Assembly: GCF_900070205.1 (NCBI RefSeq)
Contig: NZ_FAOO01000013.1
Span: 1-64,000, forward strand
Source of the DNA: Candidatus Thermokryptus mobilis
Lineage (GTDB): Bacteria > Bacteroidota > Ignavibacteria > Kryptoniales > Kryptoniaceae
DNA length: 64,000 nt
Direction of reading: 5' to 3'
How positions within the stretch are numbered: position 1 is the first letter of the stretch; every line of letters starts with the position of its first letter. The position numbers and the translations under genes are program-made. Shown piece by piece: positions 383 to 17,537 of the stretch. Under the pieces are notes generated by a model. It did not search any database and was not told where the DNA came from. It saw nothing but the letters and a program-made list of their open reading frames with translations.

Positions 383-1534
383 TCACCTTGACACAGCTTT
401 ACTTAACCCACTAACCGAAAAGTCAACTTCATTGCCGAACAAGCTCAACTTTCCATTTATATGCTTTGTTTTATCCTTGATGCGTAAACCACCATTTGAA
501 ATTTCAACCACATCATTGTGACAGCTCGTCCCGCAAGATGTAGCCGATACCTTCGGATGAGTTCCGCCAGGTGGTAGCCCGTGACAACTTCCGCACTCGG
601 CTTGACTTCCATCAACGACATTCCATTTAGGAGCATTGTTCATGTTCCCGTTTCTGAAATAACCGTGACAATATGTATTTGAACAGGTTAAATTGCCTGA
701 ATCGTAAATCGGGCTCGGCACTATATATTCACCTATGTTAAAACCAGCAGATTTATGTCTTGCAAGTGAGCTATCTTGAAAGATGACTTCTGCTCCTGGG
801 GTTGAATCAATATGACCTGGGGATTTAAGAGCGGTCGGTTTTATATGACACTCAGCACAGTCAAAACCAACGCTGACTTTACCTTCAATGAGATGAGATT
901 GATGAGCCCCGACACCACGAGAAGTTGTTGAGAAGTTATTGTTCAAATCTCTCGGCGGGGCTGGATTTGCAACACTTCCGTGACAAGTATTGCACGCCTC
1001 TGGACCACCAACGCTATTATGACAGGTATAACAAGAAGACCTGCTCACACCACCTGTATAATCTTTTCCGTGACATTGTTTGCACTGATCAAAGTCATAA
1101 CTTGTTCTTCTTAAAAACTTACCATGTGAATTTTCACTTTTAATGTCAACCCAATCTGAAGGATGAATTCTTATATCACCAAGCAAAAGGCTATCTTCAA
1201 CAACCCATTTTTTTATCTTGTCAGCTTTGATTGAGGAATCAGCACCAAGATATTTTCGCATACTTCCACCGGGCTGAGTGACGCGAACTATTTTGCTGTT
1301 TTGGTCCCCCGGAAAAGCAACACCACTTTGTATTATGCCGAAATAAGTTGAAAGGTCAAAATCTGAATTTTGGTTATGACAGCCGATGCAATTGTTATCA
1401 AAAATTGGTTTTATATCGTCTTTGTAGGTTAATTTAACTTTTGGTTGAGGTGTTAAAACATCCTCTTTTAACTCACTGCAAGAAAAGAAAAGCAATGAAA
1501 GTGAAAAAATCAAGAACAAAATTTTTGATTTCAT
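383..1534 (-). CDS. Octaheme-type c cytochrome lipoprotein
   Basis: Probable outer-membrane or cell-surface electron carrier, last gene of the lower cytochrome operon. The ATG at 1534 is chosen because it opens a lipoprotein signal (LSLLFFSC, relaxed lipobox). An upstream in-frame start would overlap the preceding gene and bury the signal. The first part (DDIKPIFDNNCIGCH) resembles the single-heme domain seen in Planctomycete-type cytochromes. Then follow CKQCH, CYTCH, CNTCH, CAECH, a CX4CH motif (CSNTYCH), CGSCH and a CX3CH motif (CGTSCH). That gives six canonical and two non-canonical heme sites. The CX4CH/CXXCH pattern recalls multiheme lipoproteins of metal-reducing Geobacter. Terminal surface position is inference from the lipobox and gene order. 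Confidence 0.85.
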   Translation of the reverse strand: MKSKILFLIFSLSLLFFSCSELKEDVLTPQPKVKLTYKDDIKPIFDNNCIGCHNQNSDFDLSTYFGIIQSGVAFPGDQNSKIVRVTQPGGSMRKYLGADSSIKADKIKKWVVEDSLLLGDIRIHPSDWVDIKSENSHGKFLRRTSYDFDQCKQCHGKDYTGGVSRSSCYTCHNSVGGPEACNTCHGSVANPAPPRDLNNNFSTTSRGVGAHQSHLIEGKVSVGFDCAECHIKPTALKSPGHIDSTPGAEVIFQDSSLARHKSAGFNIGEYIVPSPIYDSGNLTCSNTYCHGYFRNGNMNNAPKWNVVDGSQAECGSCHGLPPGGTHPKVSATSCGTSCHNDVVEISNGGLRIKDKTKHINGKLSLFGNEVDFSVSGLSKAVSR

Positions 1535-1557
1535 TTTCGTTTTTGAAAATTTAATTT

Positions 1558-2769
1558 TTACTTTTCTTGCCCATGACAATATCCACAGAAACCAATACCA
1601 GCTTTTCTAGTATTAATGTGGCAAGTAAAGCAAACCGAACCATCGTTTGTGTGCCAATCACCTTCAACATCTTTCATATAATTTTTCGGATGCGTCTTCG
1701 GGTCGTTCCCAAGTCCAGGGTTTCTATCAACATGGCAGAGAACACAAGTTGGGTCAGCTCCCTCTGTATCGTGACAGCTCATACACATTTCAATGTCCCT
1801 TTTTGCAAGTTTTGCATGCCTTCCGCCACCCGTTCCAACTCCAATTGTAACGAAATCATTTCCCTTATGCCATTCCGGTTTAACAGAACTTGTGGTTGCG
1901 CCATTTGGAACATGACAACCAGAACAGAACGTTTGCCTATCGTGGCAAACATAGCAATCATTTGACTTTGCCTTTGCGTCAATTCCGTGAGTGTAGCGGT
2001 AATTTAGGTCATGGACTCTTTGTAAAACAAGCTGTTGCTTCCCTGAGCTTTGTGGGGTGAAGGGAGAATAAAAATCACTTCCAACTCGCAAAAGATTTGC
2101 CCCATCGTGACACTGTTGACAGAAATCATCTGAATGACAAGTGATGCAACTATTTTCAGCCCCACCGGCGCGGACAAGCTTTTTATGCTCGGTTTTAAAA
2201 TCGGCTACCTTATGGCTTGACGGCAAGATTGAAACCATTTCTTTATGGCACGCCTCACATTCATTCGTAGCGATTCTATTGTTATGACAGGCAAAACAAC
2301 TCTCCATGCTTGGCAAATGTTCCGGCGTTGCATAGTCAACTTTATCTGAGCCAGCGTGACAGTCAAGACAATTCATCTTTTGATTCTCAATGTGAAATTT
2401 ATGCGAAAAGATAATTTTCCGCACCGGGGCTTCGTAAGGGACTAATAGTTCAATGTCTTTATGACAATACTCACATGGTGTTGATTTCTCATCGTGACAA
2501 TTATAGCATGTGCTCATATCAGGTAAAAGAAAATCGGAGGCGTTTTCACTTTTCAGTGCCTCAGCGTGACAATCGGTGCACTCGGCACCAACATTTTCAG
2601 CGTGAAATTGATGTGAAAATTTAATGTTCATCCATTGCTTAACATTGTCACCATAAAATTCCGCCTTGTCGGATTTGTCAGAGTTTGAAAAAGCGACAAA
2701 CACAAATGAAGCTGGAACAAGTAAAATGGTGAAGAAATACAGAGCAAAAATTTTAAAATTTGATTTCAT
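1558..2769 (-). CDS. 14-heme c-type cytochrome, exported
   Basis: A 403-residue protein with an N-terminal signal/anchor segment (hydrophobic residues about 7-28, no lipobox) and fourteen CXXCH motifs, from CTDCH to CGYCH close to the C-terminus. Many distal histidines (HQFH, HKFH) precede the motifs by the spacing usual for bis-histidine hemes. It lies between the beta-barrel gene (24 bp upstream) and the octaheme lipoprotein (23 bp downstream). It may be the cytochrome that sits in or against the barrel, by analogy with porin-cytochrome conduits. No catalytic motif of NrfA, HAO or OTR type is apparent, so an electron-transfer role is more likely than an enzyme role. Confidence 0.85.
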   Translation of the reverse strand: MKSNFKIFALYFFTILLVPASFVFVAFSNSDKSDKAEFYGDNVKQWMNIKFSHQFHAENVGAECTDCHAEALKSENASDFLLPDMSTCYNCHDEKSTPCEYCHKDIELLVPYEAPVRKIIFSHKFHIENQKMNCLDCHAGSDKVDYATPEHLPSMESCFACHNNRIATNECEACHKEMVSILPSSHKVADFKTEHKKLVRAGGAENSCITCHSDDFCQQCHDGANLLRVGSDFYSPFTPQSSGKQQLVLQRVHDLNYRYTHGIDAKAKSNDCYVCHDRQTFCSGCHVPNGATTSSVKPEWHKGNDFVTIGVGTGGGRHAKLAKRDIEMCMSCHDTEGADPTCVLCHVDRNPGLGNDPKTHPKNYMKDVEGDWHTNDGSVCFTCHINTRKAGIGFCGYCHGQEK

Positions 2770-7105: not shown

Positions 7106-7666
7106 TTACTTTTCCTTCGGCAAAGGATGAGCTATCTCAGCCCACATTTTCTTAAAGTCAAAGCCCTTAAATGTGGGACTTTCTTCATTATGACATGTCT
7201 TGCAAAGCTTCTCGGCGCTACCATCAGCGACAAGCACAAGTACAAGCCCGTTCTTGATAGCCTCTTCACGGTTTTGCATGATTTTCAATGCCTTATACTC
7301 AGACCCAGGACCATGGCAAGCCTCACATTGAACACCATCTTCAATCTTGAACCTTTCAAGGAACGCCTCTTTTGGAGCCCCAAATCCAGTCACATGACAT
7401 TTCAAGCACTCTGGCGCTTCATACGGTGGGACTTTAATTCCCTTCGCTTCAGCTATCTTTTTAGCTTCTTCAGTCTTGAGCGTTTCATACGCCTTTGCAT
7501 GTTTACTTGATTGCCAAATCTCAAACATCTTACCTTTCTTCTCACCCTTATGACATGGTGCGCAAACCGCTACACCAACATACTTGAACTTTGGAGATTC
7601 TTGAGAGAATAGATAGGTCAAATAGATGGGAATTAAAAGGAAAGAGACAGCTAATAAGCCTTTCAT
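7106..7666 (-). CDS. Tetraheme cytochrome c554-like protein
   Basis: 186 residues with an N-terminal signal or anchor and four CXXCH motifs (CAPCH, CLKCH, CEACH, CKTCH). The phrase VGVAVCAPCHK...MFEIWQSSKHAKAYETL and the later ECLKCHVTGFG and VQCEACHGPGSEY are typical of the cytochrome c554 family (electron acceptor of hydroxylamine oxidoreductase in nitrifiers, also widespread as a general carrier). No hydroxylamine oxidoreductase is present, so a role as mobile or tethered carrier for the bc-type complex is inferred. CGGAGG lies just upstream of the ATG. It is the first gene after the promoter at 7701-7729. Confidence 0.85.
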   Translation of the reverse strand: MKGLLAVSFLLIPIYLTYLFSQESPKFKYVGVAVCAPCHKGEKKGKMFEIWQSSKHAKAYETLKTEEAKKIAEAKGIKVPPYEAPECLKCHVTGFGAPKEAFLERFKIEDGVQCEACHGPGSEYKALKIMQNREEAIKNGLVLVLVADGSAEKLCKTCHNEESPTFKGFDFKKMWAEIAHPLPKEK

Positions 7667-7743: not shown

Positions 7744-9693
7744 TCAGTTGCTTGCTGTGCTAGAGATTAGTTCCCTTTTTATCTCGTTCAAAACATCAAC
7801 GACAAGTGAATAATTATGGAGCCCAGAAGCACTCCATCTTTCTATTTCCTCAACCATACGCTTAAGCTCATCCTTATCTTTCCTTGGGCTTTTTAAACTT
7901 AAATCTTTGATCTCAATTATCAATTTTCTCACCTCATTTTTCCACTCAACCGCCATTGCATCATAGCCAGCATCGTGACAGTTTAAGCAAACTTTTTCGC
8001 TCGGACGCATAACTTTATTGTTAACCACATGGCAATCCACACATTCAACCCCAGCTTCTCTCATAACATCTGGCATCTTTTTCCCCAAATAACTTCCAGA
8101 ATAAATTTCATCTGAAATTTTATGGCACGCCTTACAGCCCTCAACCGTTTGATTTTGATGATGGCAAGAATTACAATTATCCTTTGACACGATTAATTCA
8201 CCATGTCTCCTTGCATTTGAATGGCACACATTACATCTCAAACCTTTCTCTTGAACATGCTTTGAATGCTGAAAAACTGTCCCGTAGATTGCTCTTGATA
8301 TATTTTCAATCCCGGTGTGACAATTGGCGCACTCGCCTGGAACACGAGACCCAACTAAAACGCTCGGCACTTGATAATTTAAACCAGCGACTTTCACCGC
8401 CTTAGAAAGATATTCATATGCCTTTGAAATTATTTGATCGGAATAGGTTATATTATGAACCGCTTTCCCAGCTTCAACGACTGCAACCGCGTCTTTCGCC
8501 TTTTGAATATAAATTTTCGCTTCCTTGACATCGGTAAGCGAATCAACCTCTTGAATTGAACTTTTCAGCTGGGAAATCTTCTTATCCGCAGTTTCCTCCC
8601 ATAATTTCAGCAATTTAGCATAACCTTTACCATGGCATGTCTCACAGGATTGCGGACGCGCTATTTTAACTTTTGCTTCCCCAACCAACTCCTCGTGAAA
8701 GATATGACAACTTGCACAATTCAATCCCGCCTCAAACATGGGATTTGGATGTCCCTTTAAACCATTTATATCTTTTCCAGTGAATAATAAAACTTGGTTT
8801 TTATGTTCACCAGTGTGACAAGTTGTGCATTCAAGCTCCTCACCCGGGCTCAATCTCTGAATTTTATGCTGAATCGTGAGATGACATTGTATGCACTCTA
8901 TCTTATGTTCAGAGATGTGAACTCTATGCAAAAGATCTGTATTTCCATATTGGCTCAATCTCGCATGGTCAAAATGACAAGCATAACAATTCTCACGCGG
9001 GACGAATCCATCACCAATAATCGTGTTAACATGACAACGCGTGCATTCTATCCCACGCTTTACGATCTCGCTGTGATCAAATCTGTATTTCACCATTTCC
9101 TCCTTTGGTATTGACTCCCAATGATGACAAGTTTGACAATTTGAAAGTTTTCTATAAATAGCGAATTCAATATCCCCATCTCGCTTGAAATGGCACAAAA
9201 AACAAGTCGTCTCGGTAACAGTTATATGCTCCCCTTGAACTATCTGGGAGTGACAACTCGTGCATCTTAATTTTTTGCCTCGCCTCATCTCTTCAAGATG
9301 CGGAGCATGGTCAAAGACGACACCTTTGAATATAACTTTGCCCTTTAAAAGTCGCGTCTCATGACAACCACTTTGCAAACATGACTCATCAGATATCTCA
9401 GCCCAAGGTTTCCTCTTCGTATATGAACGGGCAAAATAATTCACAACTTGGACAAGACCCTCAACTTTACCTCTAACAGTGCCAGCAAACCCCGGCGGAA
9501 AATGACACTTAACACAAGTTACATCATTATGTGTTGATGTCTTCCAACTCTCGTAAAACGGCTCCATATAATGACATATTGGACAAAAAGAAGGACGGGA
9601 TGTGAACTCCGCTGAAAGTGCAATCACAAACAAAAAAGCTATGACCGCAATGCTTATTTTTAAAAGCGCCTTTTTCAACTTTCCATGTTCCAT
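7744..9693 (-). CDS. 18-heme cytochrome with NapC/NirT-type N-terminal anchor (copy 2)
   Basis: 649 residues. One N-terminal transmembrane helix is followed by a NapC/NirT-like domain (FCPICHYMEPFYESW...STHNDVTCVKCH), the quinol-oxidising module of NrfH, NapC and CymA. The third heme motif is CX4CH (CLQSGCH) and the other seventeen are CXXCH. After heme 12 comes a helical segment ending in AVHNITYSDQ, and after heme 18 a second one ending in GLHNYSLVVD, so the tail of the protein is built as a repeat. The layout (12 hemes, helices, 6 hemes, helices) is identical to the neighbouring gene, with which it abuts without spacing. Probable inner-membrane quinol dehydrogenase that carries electrons deep into the periplasm. 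Confidence 0.88.
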   Translation of the reverse strand: MEHGKLKKALLKISIAVIAFLFVIALSAEFTSRPSFCPICHYMEPFYESWKTSTHNDVTCVKCHFPPGFAGTVRGKVEGLVQVVNYFARSYTKRKPWAEISDESCLQSGCHETRLLKGKVIFKGVVFDHAPHLEEMRRGKKLRCTSCHSQIVQGEHITVTETTCFLCHFKRDGDIEFAIYRKLSNCQTCHHWESIPKEEMVKYRFDHSEIVKRGIECTRCHVNTIIGDGFVPRENCYACHFDHARLSQYGNTDLLHRVHISEHKIECIQCHLTIQHKIQRLSPGEELECTTCHTGEHKNQVLLFTGKDINGLKGHPNPMFEAGLNCASCHIFHEELVGEAKVKIARPQSCETCHGKGYAKLLKLWEETADKKISQLKSSIQEVDSLTDVKEAKIYIQKAKDAVAVVEAGKAVHNITYSDQIISKAYEYLSKAVKVAGLNYQVPSVLVGSRVPGECANCHTGIENISRAIYGTVFQHSKHVQEKGLRCNVCHSNARRHGELIVSKDNCNSCHHQNQTVEGCKACHKISDEIYSGSYLGKKMPDVMREAGVECVDCHVVNNKVMRPSEKVCLNCHDAGYDAMAVEWKNEVRKLIIEIKDLSLKSPRKDKDELKRMVEEIERWSASGLHNYSLVVDVLNEIKRELISSTASN

Positions 9694-11667
9694 TTAATTC
9701 TTATTCCCGTTTTCAACAAAATTAAAACCTCTCATAAACTTTTCAATCCTTTGTCTCAAATCGTCAATATACTGTAAGTTATGCGCTCCAAATGAACCCT
9801 CTCTCAAAAATTCTTCAATCTCGCTTCTCAATCTGACAAACTCTCCAATATTACCTTTATCACTATTAATTTTTAAAAATCGGATCAAATCTGCAAGTGA
9901 AGAATCCCATCTCTCAATTGTCTTCCTTAAATCCTCTCTCTTTCCGGCAAAATCATCAATGTAGCTTTGCTCGTGGCAAGAACCGCAAATCTCAATACCT
10001 GCTCTTATCGGCTTATCACTGTTGGATAAATGGCAATCCTGACAGGAAATGTCCGCTTGAGCCATGAAATCCTCCTCCGAGCTTAAAAACTTACCACGAT
10101 AAAATTTCGCTTGCTTATCGTGACAACTTTCACATTTAACATCAGCTCTTAAATCCCTGTGATGGCAAGAATTACAATCTTTGACAAAGTCAAGAACTTT
10201 TCCATGAGAAGGTTTTAGCGGTTCACCACCTATATGACAGTCAACACAATTTAACTTAAAAAGATGAACGCCATGCGGAAACTCCCTTGACCTGTATAAG
10301 TTATTTAAATTTTCAATACCGAAGTGACAATCAAGACACCTTGAATTATTCTTGAAAACGAACTCAACCGATGGCTTGCTGCGCGATGCCTTTATCTCCT
10401 TTTCAATTTCATCAAGCAAGACATTGACATATTTTATGTTATGCACACCGAAACTGCCATCCCTTTTCACTATCTCAAGATTCGCATTCACATTTTCATT
10501 GTTGAACTCAATCATACCAACCTTTTTTAAAAGACCGGCGATCTCAACTTCCTTCTCAATTTTACTTATCCTCTCTCTAATAATTTTCTGCCACTGTGTT
10601 ACAAGTTTATCATAACCTTTTCCATGACAATTCACACACGACATCGGATTAAATTTCGGAAGTTCAAATAATGTCTCGGCGTGTGTTTTAACAAGTTTAA
10701 CCTCATGACAACCTCTACACGATACCCCGGAGAGAAACATTGGATCGGGCAAAATTGGAACGCCTCTTCCAGCACTTCCAGCGTAGATTTTTTCTTGAAT
10801 GGAATGCCTGTTACCGTGGCATTCCTGACAAACTGGGGAAAAAACTTCAAAAACCTCAATCTTGCCGTGCTTTATCTCATTGTGACATTTAAAACAGTTT
10901 ATCCTCTCTGCGCTGACATGAACCTTATGCATATCCTTTGATCCAAGCGTCATCCCTGCCACACCTATATGACAAGATGAGCATCTCTCTAACCTAACAT
11001 CACCCCTTCCAACGACAACATGAATGTGACAAGTTCCACATTCAACTTTATTCTTGATATATTCTGAATGATTAAATGCAACACCCCAAATCATTATATC
11101 ATCCTTAGGCGGTCCATGACAACTCCCACACCCTGAAACTGGATGTGCCTCCTTTACTTCCCCACCCATAAAATGACACAATACACATATTTTTTCAGAA
11201 ACCGCCTCATGCCTGCCCTGAACAAGCTCGGAATGACATGTCTGGCATTGCATCTTGAAACCGACTTTTTCCTCCGATAAATGATTCAAATGTGTGAAGC
11301 TTATTCTACCGTTTAAGAACTTCACCTCTTTGCCGACATACCCTTTTTCACTATGACATTTCAGGCAGGACTCGTTATCAACCTTTGATCTTATCTCATA
11401 GTTGTAAACGCCAAGATAATACCTCACTATCTCAGAAAAAAGTCGAACTTTTCCTTTGAAATAATTGGAAAATCCACTCCCATAATGGCAAGTTGAACAA
11501 TTCACCTGATTATGTGTTGATGAAAGCCAATTCTCATAATATGGTTTCATAAAATGACAAGAAGCACAAAACTCCGGGTCATCCGATGCCCTTAGAAAGA
11601 GAAAAAATAGATATCCAGCGAAAACTAAAAACACGGATGAAATTAAAATCCGACGCTTACTTTTCAT
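9694..11667 (-). CDS. 18-heme cytochrome with NapC/NirT-type N-terminal anchor (copy 1)
   Basis: 657 residues, a tandem paralogue of the next gene. It has a transmembrane anchor, then a NapC/NirT-like start (FCASCHFMKPYYENW...STHNQVNCSTCH) and eighteen canonical CXXCH motifs. Helical segments with GVHNIKYVNV after heme 12 and GAHNLQYIDD after heme 18 match those of copy 2. Heme 3 is CXXCH here (CLKCH) but CX4CH in copy 2. The start overlaps the end of the cytochrome b561-type gene by 11 bp, so the two are probably co-translated. Geobacter ImcH, a NapC/NirT-type multiheme quinol oxidase used at high potential, is a functional analogue only; that protein is smaller. Confidence 0.88.
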   Translation of the reverse strand: MKSKRRILISSVFLVFAGYLFFLFLRASDDPEFCASCHFMKPYYENWLSSTHNQVNCSTCHYGSGFSNYFKGKVRLFSEIVRYYLGVYNYEIRSKVDNESCLKCHSEKGYVGKEVKFLNGRISFTHLNHLSEEKVGFKMQCQTCHSELVQGRHEAVSEKICVLCHFMGGEVKEAHPVSGCGSCHGPPKDDIMIWGVAFNHSEYIKNKVECGTCHIHVVVGRGDVRLERCSSCHIGVAGMTLGSKDMHKVHVSAERINCFKCHNEIKHGKIEVFEVFSPVCQECHGNRHSIQEKIYAGSAGRGVPILPDPMFLSGVSCRGCHEVKLVKTHAETLFELPKFNPMSCVNCHGKGYDKLVTQWQKIIRERISKIEKEVEIAGLLKKVGMIEFNNENVNANLEIVKRDGSFGVHNIKYVNVLLDEIEKEIKASRSKPSVEFVFKNNSRCLDCHFGIENLNNLYRSREFPHGVHLFKLNCVDCHIGGEPLKPSHGKVLDFVKDCNSCHHRDLRADVKCESCHDKQAKFYRGKFLSSEEDFMAQADISCQDCHLSNSDKPIRAGIEICGSCHEQSYIDDFAGKREDLRKTIERWDSSLADLIRFLKINSDKGNIGEFVRLRSEIEEFLREGSFGAHNLQYIDDLRQRIEKFMRGFNFVENGNKN

Positions 11668-12535: not shown

Positions 12536-13573
12536 TTACTCCACCGATTTTCTTTTTCTCCTAAAATGCCCAATTAAGTCAAGAACGATATGTGTGAACA
12601 GCCCAGCAAGAACGATAAGCGTGAACCACTTAAAGAATGTGTAGACATAATAAACTATCCCAGCTTCTTTTTCACCCGGCAGAATATGGAACTTTCCTTT
12701 TGCCACATTTTCGTTTGCCCTCGGATGACATTTACCACAGGTCTTTGCGAGATTTGCCGGGTGAATTGGTGACTTCGGGTCACGCGATGGTAAAACATCG
12801 TGATATTCATGACAAGAGGCACAATTAGCAGCTCTAACCACACCGAATTTCAAAGCTATACCATGGAAGCTTTCCTTGTACGCTTCTGGATTTTTAACAG
12901 GAACACCAACCCTTTTCATTAACTTTACATCAGAATGACATTTGTCACAAGTTCCAACGACATTTTTTGGATTTAAACTTGATCTCGGGTCCTCCGGAGG
13001 CAAGATATCATGCTCGCGATGACAATCAGAGCAAACCGCCGATTCAAGAACACCTCTCTGAATCCCAGCCCAGTGAATTGAACTATAATACTCATCCCTA
13101 ACCGTTTGATGGCATCTACCACAAAGTTCGGGTATTTTAGTTTTATATACACTTGAACTTGGGTCCTCTGGCTTTTTGACATAATGAACCGTGTGGCAAT
13201 CTTTACAATCGGGCGCATTTTTACCACGGGCTATAGCCCTACTGTGAACGCTTTCCTTATATTTCTCCGGCTTTGCTGTAACAGGAGCCCCAACCGTATT
13301 CCCTTCAAAATGACATTGCAAGCAATGTATTTTCTTGGGCTTGGTAAAATGAGGTATGACCCTTACATCAACATGGCAAGCAACACAGAGAAACTTACTG
13401 TGCACTGAACTTTCAAATTCCTCTCTTGAGACATAAAGTGATTTAAATCTCCCCTGTTCAATCACACCAAAATTTTTAACACCATGACAAACAAAACATC
13501 TATCATTTTTCAACTGCGAATTCGCTTGACCGATCACAAAGAAGAAAAATAAAAAAATCAGCCCATATCTCAT
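12536..13573 (-). CDS. 9-heme c cytochrome with C-terminal transmembrane helix
   Basis: Signal peptide (FFFFVIGQANSQ), nine CXXCH motifs (CFVCH to CGKCH), then a transmembrane helix and a basic tail (GHFRRKRK). The last heme region, CGKCHPRANENVAKGKFH, and the helix after it correspond to CGKCHPGANENFTKGKIH and helix in the 17-heme fusion. It therefore looks like the c-type half of the same module, here unfused. It sits between two b561-type genes, overlapping the upstream one by 4 bp. The domain pair resembles the Geobacter CbcL type (cytochrome b joined to a nonaheme domain), which oxidises menaquinol at low potential. The equivalence is inference. Confidence 0.86.
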   Translation of the reverse strand: MRYGLIFLFFFFVIGQANSQLKNDRCFVCHGVKNFGVIEQGRFKSLYVSREEFESSVHSKFLCVACHVDVRVIPHFTKPKKIHCLQCHFEGNTVGAPVTAKPEKYKESVHSRAIARGKNAPDCKDCHTVHYVKKPEDPSSSVYKTKIPELCGRCHQTVRDEYYSSIHWAGIQRGVLESAVCSDCHREHDILPPEDPRSSLNPKNVVGTCDKCHSDVKLMKRVGVPVKNPEAYKESFHGIALKFGVVRAANCASCHEYHDVLPSRDPKSPIHPANLAKTCGKCHPRANENVAKGKFHILPGEKEAGIVYYVYTFFKWFTLIVLAGLFTHIVLDLIGHFRRKRKSVE

Positions 13574-14256
13574 CTTTCACTTTCCTTATTTTTTATATCA
13601 AGATATTCAAGATAATGGTTTTCCTTGAGCCATTCCTCAGAAACATAACCATGCCAAAAGGAGGAGTTCATCGGGAAATTTCCCGGAGAGAGATGAACTA
13701 AGTAAAGATGCCAAAGGACAAGAAATGTTATTATAAGAGTTGCCGTCGCACTATGTAACGCCTGCGAAAGGTCAAAAAACCATTTCGGGAAAATACCAAA
13801 GAGATAATTGTGAAACCAGAGAACGAAACCGCTCAAAGTCATTATCAAAAAGAATATAAAAAATGCCCAATATTGAATCTTCTCTTTATACGAATACCTG
13901 CCATACATAGGTGGTCTCTCATTTTTGCCTATGTCGTATCTAAAACTTTCAACGAAATCCTTAAAATCTTTTTTCCTTGGCAACAACTCGATGAACTCAT
14001 GTCTGCCCTCAGAGGTGAAAATGATATAAATTAGGTGATAAATTCCCGTTATAAAAAGCAATATCGCTGAAATCCTATGAATAGTTCCCCTCGCTTCAAA
14101 ACCACCCTCAATGAAAATCAAAAACCTCCCAAGCCAAGTATCGTGATACCTCAAAGCAAAACCAGTTATTATCAAAAGTATAACGCTCACCATCAAAAGA
14201 AAATGCTGAATTCTCCAAGAAAGCGAAAAACGCAATATCTTTTTACCTGTTTCCAT
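13570..14256 (-). CDS. Di-heme cytochrome b561-type membrane subunit
   Basis: 228 residues, almost entirely membrane helices, without the charged extension of its paralogue at 11657-12535. Candidate heme ligands lie in RIQHFLL, TIHRISA, IYHLIYI, ALHSATA and LWHLYLV. The RKKDFKDFVESF...YGRYSYKEKIQYWA loop is shared with the other two b561 domains of this operon. It probably takes electrons from menaquinol and hands them to the 9-heme protein, whose ATG overlaps its stop codon. Confidence 0.85.
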   Translation of the reverse strand: METGKKILRFSLSWRIQHFLLMVSVILLIITGFALRYHDTWLGRFLIFIEGGFEARGTIHRISAILLFITGIYHLIYIIFTSEGRHEFIELLPRKKDFKDFVESFRYDIGKNERPPMYGRYSYKEKIQYWAFFIFFLIMTLSGFVLWFHNYLFGIFPKWFFDLSQALHSATATLIITFLVLWHLYLVHLSPGNFPMNSSFWHGYVSEEWLKENHYLEYLDIKNKESER

Positions 14257-14272
14257 ATTTCAACCTATTTTT

Positions 14273-14530
14273 TTATTCAAAATACTCAAAACTTGACCTG
14301 ATCCCATCTGTAACTGAAATTTGTGCCTCAATCTCTTTCAATTTCTCCTCAAGCAAACGGCGATGCTCTTTCTCCATCTCAGCAAGCTCAAGCAAAAACT
14401 TTTGAACCTGAGGCTCGCATGCTTTCAAAGACGCAGAGTAATAATAATCAAACGAATCCTTCTCTCGCTCAATGGCTGTCCTCAAAATTTCAACGATTAT
14501 GTTTTTAACTTCCATATTTTCGCAACTCAT
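14273..14530 (-). CDS. Small ferritin-like (half-rubrerythrin) protein
   Basis: 85 residues, nearly all helical. It has two iron-ligand-like motifs, EREKDSFDYY on the first helix and EMEKEHRRLL on the second, as in one half of the four-helix rubrerythrin/ferritin bundle. A di-iron site would need dimerisation, as in the two-helix encapsulated ferritins. AGAGGT lies a few bases before the ATG and overlaps the end of the 17-heme gene, so it belongs to the cytochrome operon. Possible roles are iron buffering or peroxide protection for heme-rich membranes. Function is unproven. Confidence 0.65.
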   Translation of the reverse strand: MSCENMEVKNIIVEILRTAIEREKDSFDYYYSASLKACEPQVQKFLLELAEMEKEHRRLLEEKLKEIEAQISVTDGIRSSFEYFE

Positions 14531-14532
14531 AG

Positions 14533-16929
14533 CTAAACCTCTTGTTTAATTTTTTGAGTTTTTATCCTTTCAAGCTCCAAAGGATGCTCTTTCTCCATCT
14601 CCTCTTCAGTCAAATAACCAGTCAACCAAGCAAAATTCATAGGATAAACATCCGGGTTGAAAATCACATAATAGATATGCCAAACGATTATAGCCAAGAA
14701 AGCAAGCCACGCTTCAAAATAATGAATTGTATTGCAAACATCAACAAATGTTTTTGAAAACCAACCCATGAAATGATTCTCAAACCAAAGAACCACACCT
14801 GTCACCGTCATAACAACCGTCCCCCAGATCAAAGCCCAATATTCACTCTTCTCAATGTAATTGAACCTGCCAAACTTCGGCTTCTCCTTTGAAAGCCCAA
14901 GATTATATTTTAAAACTTGAACCATATCTTTAACATCTTGCTTCCTAAACATTATGTCCCGTATAAACTCCCTGCCTCTTTTCGTGAAGATGATGTAATA
15001 GAGATGATAAATTGAATCAAGAACTAAGACAACCGCAGCAATTCTGTGTATTAAACCCCTGTATTTAAAAAATCCTTCACCACCGATATTTCTTATACCA
15101 ACAACCCACCAGGCATCCGGAAAAGCAAGCATGAAACCAGTTATTACAAGCGTGAAGAAACTGATAAGAAGCGCAAAATGCTGAACTCTTTCTTCAAGCG
15201 TCATCCTAAGATACAAATTCGTCTTCCGTTCAAGTTCGTCCCTATGATAAACCCCATGCGAATGCTTTTGCTTATACCTATCTATCGTTTTCCTTATCCA
15301 GTCCAGGACATTGTGAATAAACATTGACCCAACGATTGAGACGATCAAAACGATGTAAATCGTTGATATCCAGTAGATGATTTTTTCATCTGTGCTTGTA
15401 ACTGTTACATGGATTTTCCCCTTTGTAAAGTTTTCATTTGCCCCTGGATGACACTTGCCACATGTTTTTACAAGATTTGCCTTGTGAATGCTTGACCTCG
15501 GATCAGAAGATGGTAAAATATCGTGAACACCGTGACAGCTTGCACAATTTGCTGCTTCAACATTCCCAAGGCGGACATTTAAACCATGATAGCTATCAAC
15601 AAACGATTTATATTTACCTGACGGGAGCCCGTACTTCTCTTCAAATTTAACCGAGCCATGACATTTTGAACAAAGTTGAAGTGCGACATTTCTCGGCGCA
15701 ACCGGTGAGCGTGGATCGGTTGGTTCAAGAATTAAATGCTCACCGTGACAATCCGTGCATGTAGGCGAATCGGCGTTACCCTTGCTTAGGGCAACACCGT
15801 GAACGCTTTGACTGAATTCTTCAACTACCTTTACATGACAGCGTCCGCATGTTGAAGCAACATTGAACTTAAAGACCTTTGATGCGGGATTACTTACCTT
15901 CATCATCTCGTGAGCACCGTGACAATCACTGCAAACCGCAGCGTTTTCATTCCCAGCGTGATACAATCGCCCATGAACACTTTTCTCATAAGAAGATATA
16001 AAACTTGAAGTGTGCGTCATCCTCTGCCTGACATCCGGATTATCAAGGTGACATCTCAAACAAATTTCTATCTCATTTGCTCGGCTTATCTTTGATTTTG
16101 AACTCGTTACTTTAAATATATCGTGCTCACCGTGACAGTCCGTGCAAGTCGGCGCCTGTTCAAAACCACTAGCGAATGATTTCCCATGATCGGACTCAAA
16201 ATAATTCCTTGAAATTTCCTCGTGACATTTCATACATGTATGAGATATATTTCGCCTTGCAACACTTGAATTCGGATCGCTCGCCTTCAACACCTTATGC
16301 CCCGTATGACAACCAGAACAAGGTACGACCTTCCCGTGAATGCTCTCTTTATATTTCAAAACGAACTCCTGCTTCTCGTGCACGATCTTCTTGTCAGCAT
16401 GACAGCGTAAACAAACATCAGAAGAAGCTAACTTAACAGAATGATATCCATGACAACTGATGCAATTAGCGCCATTTCTAACATTACCATGAACGCTGGC
16501 TTTAAAATCGTCAAATTCTTTAACATGACAATTTGAACATCTCCTAACGAAATCCGAACGTGAAACCTTTACAATCCCATGAACATCTCCATGGCATGAA
16601 GAACAACCAACAACACTCGCATGCTTACTTTTATTAAACTCAACCACCTCGTTTCCGTGACAAATTGAGCAATCAACCGATTCAATTTTTTCTTTGTGCG
16701 GGATTTCATCAGGGTTAAAGCCCAAATGACAATCAATACAACTCAAAGAGGAATGAACGGACTTCTCAAACTTCTTTTGATCAACATAAAGAGAAATCAC
16801 CTTACCTGCTCGTTCCATGGTAAGCGTTTTATCATCATGACAGGCAAAACATTGAGAATTATCCTGCGACAATAAAGGTGCTTTCAAAATCAAAATTAAT
16901 AAAAATGATTTGAATGCCTTCCTGAGCAT
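14533..16929 (-). CDS. 17-heme c cytochrome fused to a cytochrome b561-type domain
   Basis: 798 residues. A signal peptide is followed by about 520 residues with seventeen CXXCH motifs in the repeat pattern SVHG...C.DCHG.H...DPRS...C..CH. Then come a transmembrane helix (YIVLIVSIVGSMFIH) and a b561-type four-helix domain with candidate ligands RVQHFAL, LIHRIAA, IYHLYYI and IWHIYYV. This joins quinol oxidation and a long periplasmic heme wire in one chain. Geobacter CbcL has the same logic with nine hemes in the c domain. Its C-terminal half matches the split 9-heme plus b561 gene pair downstream, so the operon holds both fused and unfused forms. It follows the receiver gene by 13 bp. Confidence 0.88.
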   Translation of the reverse strand: MLRKAFKSFLLILILKAPLLSQDNSQCFACHDDKTLTMERAGKVISLYVDQKKFEKSVHSSLSCIDCHLGFNPDEIPHKEKIESVDCSICHGNEVVEFNKSKHASVVGCSSCHGDVHGIVKVSRSDFVRRCSNCHVKEFDDFKASVHGNVRNGANCISCHGYHSVKLASSDVCLRCHADKKIVHEKQEFVLKYKESIHGKVVPCSGCHTGHKVLKASDPNSSVARRNISHTCMKCHEEISRNYFESDHGKSFASGFEQAPTCTDCHGEHDIFKVTSSKSKISRANEIEICLRCHLDNPDVRQRMTHTSSFISSYEKSVHGRLYHAGNENAAVCSDCHGAHEMMKVSNPASKVFKFNVASTCGRCHVKVVEEFSQSVHGVALSKGNADSPTCTDCHGEHLILEPTDPRSPVAPRNVALQLCSKCHGSVKFEEKYGLPSGKYKSFVDSYHGLNVRLGNVEAANCASCHGVHDILPSSDPRSSIHKANLVKTCGKCHPGANENFTKGKIHVTVTSTDEKIIYWISTIYIVLIVSIVGSMFIHNVLDWIRKTIDRYKQKHSHGVYHRDELERKTNLYLRMTLEERVQHFALLISFFTLVITGFMLAFPDAWWVVGIRNIGGEGFFKYRGLIHRIAAVVLVLDSIYHLYYIIFTKRGREFIRDIMFRKQDVKDMVQVLKYNLGLSKEKPKFGRFNYIEKSEYWALIWGTVVMTVTGVVLWFENHFMGWFSKTFVDVCNTIHYFEAWLAFLAIIVWHIYYVIFNPDVYPMNFAWLTGYLTEEEMEKEHPLELERIKTQKIKQEV

Positions 16930-16942
16930 AGGTTGATATCTT

Positions 16943-17305
16943 TTAAGTGGTGGATTTTTTTATTTCACTTATTAACTTCTTCAGTTCAGAAATTCTAAAA
17001 AGTTTATTCCCGCACCTCACAATCCTCTCATCCTCAAAATCAATATCCTCGCTCAAAGCGTAAAACGGCGCTATATAAATCACCTTAGCGTTAGGCATAA
17101 CATCGCTTAAGAAGTGCTTTATACCACACTGATCCCGATTATAAATGTTTTCATCAACGATGACGACATCATACTTATTTTTCAAAAAACTTTCATTTGC
17201 CTCCTTCTTTGAACTTGCAACATAGACATCAAACCCTTCGCGAGCGAGGAATTTGCTCAATAAATTTCGCATTGATTCGTCTGCGTCAACTATTAAAACC
17301 TTCAT
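16943..17305 (-). CDS. Stand-alone receiver-domain protein (atypical CheY-like)
   Basis: 120 residues from the ATG at 17305. This start opens directly with the receiver strand MKVLIVDADE, while the longer frame adds an unrelated tail. The probable phosphoacceptor Asp is in DVVIVDENI, and the usual KPF is KLF (GNKLF). The Ser/Thr normally found after strand 4 appears replaced by Ala (VIYIAPF), so phosphorylation switching may be altered or lost. There is no output domain. It is the first gene of the cytochrome operon and probably acts through protein contacts or a distant kinase. The assignment to the fold is firm, the role is not. Confidence 0.75.
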   Translation of the reverse strand: MKVLIVDADESMRNLLSKFLAREGFDVYVASSKKEANESFLKNKYDVVIVDENIYNRDQCGIKHFLSDVMPNAKVIYIAPFYALSEDIDFEDERIVRCGNKLFRISELKKLISEIKKSTT

Positions 17306-17537
17306 CTTCTCTGAAGCTTTAATTATTCTGTAAGTAAATGCAACAATCATTGTGCCAGAATTTTAAACAAAAAATCACTAAATTTTAATCGGATTATCCC
17401 CCTTGAATTGCCCCTATAATGTGGCAAAAATGCACTTTGTTGGGAAAATGGGAAAAAATTAAAACATAAAAGCCGTTGTTTTTTTCAAGACGCCTTCTTA
17501 TCTTAAAGCAAGGAACGAAAATAAAAAACTTCAAACA
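17306..17537. promoter_or_regulatory. Divergent intergenic region between the cytochrome operon and the cNMP-binding gene
   Basis: 232 bp with promoters expected in both directions. A TATAAT occurs on the plus strand at 17415-17420, but no good -35 lies 16-18 bp upstream. On the minus strand there is no clear hexamer pair. An activator-dependent promoter would fit the weak -35, but no operator palindrome was found. Confidence 0.35.

What the first reader, a model, noticed from the sequence alone, without database searches (positions are those of the whole stretch)
7744..11667. Tandem 18-heme NapC/NirT-type cytochromes with a matching 12+6 heme layout and a repeated HN-helix module
Both proteins begin with a NapC/NirT-like anchor and have 12 hemes, a helical segment ending in x-HN-xxY-like sequence, 6 hemes, and a second such segment. 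The four helical segments (AVHNITY, GLHNYSL, GVHNIKY, GAHNLQY) look like copies of one module, so the C-terminal part seems to have arisen by duplication, and then the whole gene duplicated. Helical segments after the last heme are also known in NrfA-type proteins, where they form dimer contacts. NapC and NrfH have about four hemes, so these are much larger.
Basis: partly seen in the sequence, partly recalled or inferred. Interest (0 to 1): 0.75.

Follow-up and report, generated by a model that had tools for sequence, protein, structure and literature searches.

The report
Paired 18-heme periplasmic electron wires
Two neighbouring genes of a hot-spring bacterium (Candidatus Kryptonia) encode membrane-anchored proteins that each string 18 hemes together from an NrfH-like anchor and two copies of a module related to the metal-reductase cytochrome OcwA, probably to carry electrons from the inner membrane towards an outer-membrane conduit for breathing on minerals.

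Summary
Two adjacent minus-strand genes (B, 9694-11667; A, 7744-9693) encode NapC/NrfH-anchored cytochromes with 18 aligned hemes each; A's third heme is CX4CH. The four HN helix segments are homologous beyond HN and beyond heme motifs: heme-free helix profiles beat column-shuffled controls in all four m1-m2 combinations. A module tree puts the internal duplication before the A/B split. The module is not new: sequence profiles and Foldseek place it with the heme core and C-terminal three-helix bundle of the NrfA superfamily, closest to OcwA (Thermincola extracellular reductase), then OmhA, MccA, ONR, NrfA. The HN histidine aligns with E. coli NrfA H393 (from memory, a heme axial ligand); the conserved Met matches OcwA's Met-ligated last heme. 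Conserved residues supply 18 candidate distal ligands for 18 hemes and no OcwA-type His-His pocket is seen, so a conductor is likelier than an enzyme. Both genes sit in a packed 15-gene cluster whose output part is orthologous to a porin-cytochrome cluster in Ignavibacteria-like genomes. B travels with b561-9heme-b561, A with a b561-linked 17/18-heme protein. Best reading: two inner-membrane-tethered wires feeding one outer-membrane conduit.

The parts
9694..11667 (-). Gene B: 657-aa, 18-heme NapC/NrfH-anchored cytochrome
11218..11667 (-). B residues 1-150: N-terminal helix plus NrfH-like tetraheme part (hemes 1-4; CXXCHxM at heme 1)
   Evidence: PF03264 E 2.7e-9; TIGR03153 E 7.6e-17, below its equivalog cut-off; PDB 2j7a
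10996..11217 (-). B residues 151-224: c7/c3-like hemes 5-7
   Evidence: PF14537/PF14522, alignment A2
10342..10995 (-). B module 1: hemes 8-12 and three-helix bundle
   Evidence: A5 profile to OcwA E 4.3e-31; AF2 model and Foldseek best hit OcwA
10438..10443 (-). B HN (409-410), predicted axial ligand of heme 11
   Evidence: invariant in A5; aligned by spacing with E. coli NrfA H393; ligand role of H393 from memory
9697..10350 (-). B module 2: hemes 13-18 and three-helix bundle
9778..9783 (-). B HN (629-630), predicted axial ligand of heme 17
7744..9693 (-). Gene A: 649-aa, 18-heme paralog of B (33% identity)
9361..9381 (-). A heme 3, atypical CX4CH (CLQSGCH), shared by A-type relatives of f14 and by Aerophobetes L030
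8335..9000 (-). A module 1: hemes 8-12 and HN bundle (HN 413 at 8452-8457)
7747..8343 (-). A module 2: hemes 13-18 and HN bundle (HN 626 at 7813-7818)
14533..16929 (-). 17-heme protein with C-terminal cytochrome b561 domain (CbcL-like layout), predicted quinol-oxidising input that goes with A
   Evidence: PF01292 E 3e-17; synteny
13570..14256 (-). cytochrome b561 (first of the b561-9heme-b561 unit that precedes B)
   Evidence: PF01292, synteny
12536..13573 (-). 9-heme cytochrome with C-terminal membrane helix
11657..12535 (-). cytochrome b561, overlaps the start of B by 11 bp
7106..7666 (-). 4-heme cytochrome c554-like periplasmic carrier
   Evidence: PF13435 E 2.4e-22; ortholog in L039
6586..7074 (-). 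Rieske iron-sulfur protein
   Evidence: PF00355
5499..6581 (-). cytochrome b of a bc complex
   Evidence: PF00033, PF00032
4055..5479 (-). 11-heme cytochrome with C-terminal membrane helix
2793..4058 (-). predicted beta-barrel outer-membrane protein of the conduit
   Evidence: 33% identical over its length to the barrel of L039; only weak Pfam porin hits
1558..2769 (-). 14-heme conduit cytochrome
   Evidence: 39% identical to L039 14-heme protein
383..1579 (-). putative outer-membrane lipoprotein cytochrome with 6 CXXCH plus atypical motifs

Best explanation
A and B are inner-membrane-anchored periplasmic electron conductors of an extracellular (probably Fe(III)) electron-transfer pathway. Each is a mosaic: an NrfH/NapC-like tetraheme head at the membrane, three c7-like hemes, and two tandem copies of an OcwA/NrfA-type core (5 or 6 hemes plus a three-helix bundle). 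Electrons from menaquinol enter either through the head itself or from partner b-type cytochromes: b561-9heme-b561 for B, the 17-heme-b561 protein (and possibly the bc complex) for A. They pass along the 18 hemes to the c554-like carrier and then to the barrel/14-heme/lipoprotein conduit. The HN histidine of each bundle is an axial ligand of the penultimate heme of its module (11, 17), and the conserved Met of the last (12, 18). Shown: architecture, homology, internal duplication, synteny. Inferred: ligands, absence of a catalytic site, direction and partners, wire function.
For: N-terminal NapC/NrfH match. Module match to OcwA E 4.3e-31, OmhA 3.7e-17, MccA 9e-10, NrfA 1.5e-4. In both Foldseek searches the best hits are all of the NrfA superfamily, OcwA first. 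15 conserved non-CXXCH His plus Met40, Met310 and Met535 give 18 candidate distal ligands for 18 hemes; OcwA heme 9 is His/Met and the NrfH quinol heme uses the Met of CXXCHXM (PMC8840924). No OcwA-type His-His pair and no CXXCK. A packed 15-gene cluster, gaps at most 77 bp. Orthologous output genes (c554-like, barrel, 14-heme, lipoprotein) next to A in f14 and to B in f2. The I. album Pcc cluster of Shi et al. has the same elements (PMC4245776). Kryptonia was already predicted to respire iron by an Mtr-like, non-homologous pathway (PMC4737851).
Against: The full-length AF2 model is poor (mean pLDDT 57), so heme order, length and ligands are not seen in structure. OcwA also has enough His for all hemes and still has two open sites, so the ligand count is suggestive only. 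The NrfH score is below the equivalog cut-off. Hydrothermus has a B-type and an A-like gene without a detectable barrel nearby. No expression or biochemical data.
Confidence: 0.72

Rival explanations
1. A and/or B are enzymes: membrane-tethered NrfHA-like fusions in which one or both OcwA/NrfA-type cores keep an open heme (position 8 or 13) and reduce a small nitrogen or sulfur compound.
For: Module homologous to enzymes NrfA, ONR, MccA and to OcwA, which reduces nitrite slowly; NrfH-like head; OcwA's heme 5, an open site, aligns with heme 8.
Against: No CXXCK; the His-His pocket pair of OcwA is not conserved (single H288); every heme can be given a conserved ligand; genes always found among electron-transfer cytochromes and, in Bacteroidota, conduit genes.
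Confidence: 0.12
2. They are quinol dehydrogenases first (CymA/NapC-like) and the 14 extra hemes are mainly an electron store (capacitor) rather than a path to the outer membrane.
For: NapC/NirT head with CXXCHxM and an invariant Lys (K73/K76) that by ungapped numbering corresponds to the quinol-site Lys of Desulfovibrio NrfH (role of that Lys from memory); many hemes.
Against: The acidic residue of the NrfH quinol site is not conserved at that spacing (read from A2; NrfH site from memory); separate b-type cytochromes accompany A and B in every full-length locus with flanks; constant linkage to conduit genes in Bacteroidota lineages.
Confidence: 0.12
3. The cluster runs inward, taking electrons from outside (Fe(II), a partner cell or electrode) to the quinone pool.
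For: Porin-cytochrome conduits work in both directions in other bacteria (PMC6295460); a bc complex and several b561 proteins are present.
Against: Kryptonia is described as a heterotroph with predicted ferric respiration (PMC4737851).
Confidence: 0.04

Closest known systems
OcwA (Thermincola potens, PDB 6I5B) and OmhA (Carboxydothermus ferrireducens, 6QVM)
   Same: Heme order, His/Met last heme and C-terminal HN three-helix bundle match the module (E 4.3e-31 and 3.7e-17); same presumed process, extracellular electron transfer.
   Different: OcwA is a single-core surface nonaheme protein with two open hemes; here the core is present twice, fused to a membrane head, with c7-like His pairs added.
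NrfA / ONR / MccA superfamily
   Same: Same C-terminal bundle and last-heme arrangement; HN aligned with NrfA H393.
   Different: No recognisable catalytic heme (no CXXCK), shorter heme core.
NrfH / NapC / CymA quinol dehydrogenases
   Same: N-terminal helix, four hemes, CXXCHxM at heme 1.
   Different: 14 further hemes and two bundles; below the NrfH equivalog cut-off; quinol-site acid not conserved.
ImcH and CbcL (Geobacter)
   Same: Inner-membrane multiheme entry points of extracellular electron transfer; the 17-heme-b561 neighbour has a CbcL-like layout.
   Different: ImcH homologs have 6-10 hemes and usually 3 N-terminal helices (PMC6295460); CbcL has b-type membrane hemes, A/B do not.
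Pcc cluster of Ignavibacterium album (IALB_1837-1840, PMC4245776)
   Same: Porin, 14-heme periplasmic cytochrome, outer-membrane cytochrome with atypical heme motifs, small periplasmic cytochrome.
   Different: The passages read of that survey do not describe an adjacent 18-heme protein; Kryptonia adds B, b561-9heme-b561 and a bc complex.

Membership tests
NapC/NirT (NrfH) family | N-terminal membrane helix followed by a PF03264 multiheme domain | tested here: met
   PF03264 E 1e-10 (A) and 2.7e-9 (B), above cut-off; helix at residues 5-23
NrfH equivalog (TIGR03153) | score above the curated cut-off 134 bits | tested here: not met
   66.5 and 61.7 bits
NrfH | CXXCHXM methionine at heme 1 | tested here: met
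   M40/M43 invariant in 18 homologs; role from PMC8840924
NrfH | menaquinol oxidation | not testable with these tools
   needs biochemistry
NrfA/OcwA superfamily | C-terminal three-helix bundle after the last heme | tested here: met
   AF2 and Foldseek to OcwA/MccA/ONR/NrfA
NrfA/OcwA superfamily | sequence homology over the heme core | tested here: met
   A5 profile to 6i5b residues 278-499, E 2.3e-26 for that stretch
NrfA enzyme | catalytic heme (CXXCK or open distal site) | tested here: inconclusive
   no CXXCK (sequence); an open site is not excluded by sequence
NrfA-type dimer | dimer formed through the bundle | not testable with these tools
   no multimer prediction available
ImcH | three N-terminal helices, 6-10 hemes | tested here: not met
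   one N-terminal helix, 18 hemes
Porin-cytochrome (Pcc) cluster | porin, multiheme periplasmic and outer-membrane cytochrome genes together | tested here: met
   barrel assignment rests on weak Pfam hits and similarity to the L039 barrel

The most novel reading that the evidence does not exclude
A and B are two matched wires, each dedicated to its own b-type quinol oxidase, that meet through their HN bundles (with the last hemes of facing modules touching, as hemes 5 do in NrfA dimers) to form one hetero-oligomeric, periplasm-spanning conductor that merges two inputs of different potential into one outer-membrane conduit. It would be a fixed bridge in place of diffusing carriers, built by repeating an enzyme fold that has lost catalysis.
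Probability: 0.15. Interest if true: 0.75.

Novelty: new variant of a known kind. Interest (0 to 1): 0.5.

Why it matters
How electrons cross the periplasm in extracellular respiration is an open question, with diffusing carriers and fixed bridges as the alternatives. An inner-membrane protein with 18 hemes, placed between quinol-oxidase genes and outer-membrane conduit genes in the Bacteroidota lineages seen here, is a concrete bridge candidate. It also shows the NrfA/OcwA fold used twice in tandem as a likely conductor, and it gives two orthologous groups (A, B) that go with different inputs, so the idea of input-specific wires can be tested.

Tried and rejected
Whole genome as file: not available. 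Full-length AF2 was poor (mean pLDDT 57); a module-only model with module 1 and module 2 rows pooled improved it to 70. Recent local tandem duplication: rejected, because A-type and B-type occur apart in other lineages and the tree rejects m1A+m2A as one clade (AU p 0.007). HN by chance: rejected. Dimer signature as the reason for HN: not supported over the ligand reading. Plasmid search gave only NapC-head hits. Searching the phylum of Hydrothermus was not possible. Literature searches with 18-heme and NapC terms listed no paper whose title or abstract describes this protein; not every listed paper was read, and no claim is made for subscription papers or database annotations.
Full report
What is there. 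The window lies in a genome of the Kryptonia lineage: the nearest named relatives of gene B are Candidatus Thermokryptus, Kryptonium thompsonii and another Kryptonia bacterium. Genes B (9694-11667) and A (7744-9693) are adjacent on the minus strand with no gap, and belong to a 15-gene run from 17350 down to 383 with gaps of at most 77 bp and several overlaps. B has 18 CXXCH; A has 17 CXXCH plus one CX4CH at the third heme. They are 33% identical and all heme sites align.

Architecture. The first about 150 residues match NapC/NirT (PF03264) and NrfH, though below the NrfH equivalog cut-off, including the CXXCHxM of the quinol heme (meaning of the Met: PMC8840924). Hemes 5-7 are c7/c3-like. Then come two homologous modules: hemes 8-12 plus a three-helix bundle, and hemes 13-18 plus a three-helix bundle. 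In the 19-row module alignment, five CXXCH, H23, H26, H43, H64, G73, M86, Y128 and HN185-186 are invariant. The sixth heme of module 2 (heme 16) uses as its proximal His the residue that is a lone conserved His in module 1 (H288), so one heme was gained or lost in between.

More than chance. With the heme motifs cut away, module 1 and module 2 profiles align at E 6e-12. Split by paralog, every m1-m2 pairing beats 40 column-shuffled controls (24.5 vs 14.2, 59.4 vs 20.1, 28.3 vs 16.5, 35.3 vs 18.6). Only these four copies of the full module are found in the genome; three further hits are short weak ones in multiheme stretches.

History. The tree of 35 modules with OcwA as outgroup groups module 2 of A with module 2 of B (96/91) and module 1 with module 1 (80/70, weak); module 1 and 2 of A as one clade is rejected (AU p 0.007). 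So the inner duplication came first, with the caveat of long branches. The A/B split is old: B-type alone occurs in family f2 of the same order, A-type alone in f14 of the class and in G180 of the phylum, and Hydrothermus has a B-type and a shortened A-like protein. A stand-alone 9-heme protein like the N-terminal half occurs in Aerophobetes (L030).

What the module is. Profile search of solved structures: OcwA 4.3e-31, OmhA 3.7e-17, MccA 9.2e-10, NrfA 1.5e-4. Foldseek with both AF2 models returns OcwA, then OmhA, MccA, ONR and NrfA ahead of unrelated folds; the models are weak (pLDDT 57 and 70), so only the bundles and the ranking are used. OcwA's own description is a heme domain with a C-terminal three-helix bundle of the NrfA family, hemes 5-9 superimposing on NrfA, heme 9 His/Met (PMC6703420). 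The HN of our modules aligns with the HN of OcwA and by spacing with H393 of E. coli NrfA (sequence). That H393 is the axial ligand of NrfA heme 4 is from memory of its UniProt record. By this mapping HN ligates hemes 11 and 17 and the conserved Met hemes 12 and 18.

Catalysis or conduction. Across 18 homologs 15 non-CXXCH His are conserved, and three Met, 18 candidates for 18 hemes. The His-His pocket pair of OcwA is not present and there is no CXXCK. This favours six-coordinate, conducting hemes, but OcwA itself has spare His and still has open hemes, so the point is not settled. In NrfH the Met-ligated quinol heme is five-coordinate, so heme 1 may be the one exception.

Context. The neighbours include a 17-heme-b561 protein, b561-9heme-b561, a c554-like tetraheme protein, Rieske and cytochrome b, an 11-heme protein, a predicted outer-membrane barrel, a 14-heme protein and a lipoprotein-like cytochrome. 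The four output types (c554-like, barrel, 14-heme, lipoprotein) are orthologous to those next to A-type genes in f14 (33-44% identity). Across lineages B follows b561-9heme-b561, and A follows the 17/18-heme-b561 genes in f14 and G180; in Kryptonia both inputs and both wires stand before one output set. The I. album Pcc cluster has the same output elements (PMC4245776). Kryptonia was predicted to respire Fe(III) by an Mtr-like but non-homologous pathway (PMC4737851). Cytochrome c assembly proteins are present in the genome.

Verdict. A real, well-conserved architecture, not described in the texts found here, made of known parts: NrfH-like head plus tandem OcwA/NrfA-type modules, most likely input-specific periplasmic wires of an extracellular electron-transfer system. 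New variant of a known kind.

Noticed in passing
window 14273-14530 (-): An 85-aa rubrerythrin-like protein (PF02915 E 8e-8) sits inside the cytochrome cluster and is conserved at the same place in other Kryptonia; role unknown.
   Followed up: partly
L030:660-1592 (Aerophobetes): Stand-alone 310-aa NapC-type cytochrome with 8 CXXCH plus a CX4CH, corresponding to the N-terminal half of A/B without the HN modules.
   Followed up: partly
L028:4868-6556 (Candidatus Hydrothermus): A-like protein with 18 CXXCH that ends just after the last heme, without the second HN bundle, and lies next to Rieske, cytochrome b and a 9-heme gene.
   Followed up: partly
L042:14356-14766 (G005): This genus member keeps a Rieske-like gene in the cluster, but no cytochrome b or 11-heme gene was detected there, so the bc part looks dispensable.
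   Followed up: no
L005 (G000:C1 around 134364-134519): A further 691-aa, 9-CXXCH cytochrome with several HN dipeptides elsewhere in the genome; it does not match the module profile.
   Followed up: no
window 16943-17350 (-): A single-domain response regulator is the first gene of the cluster, and similar small regulators precede the cluster in other Kryptonia.
   Followed up: no
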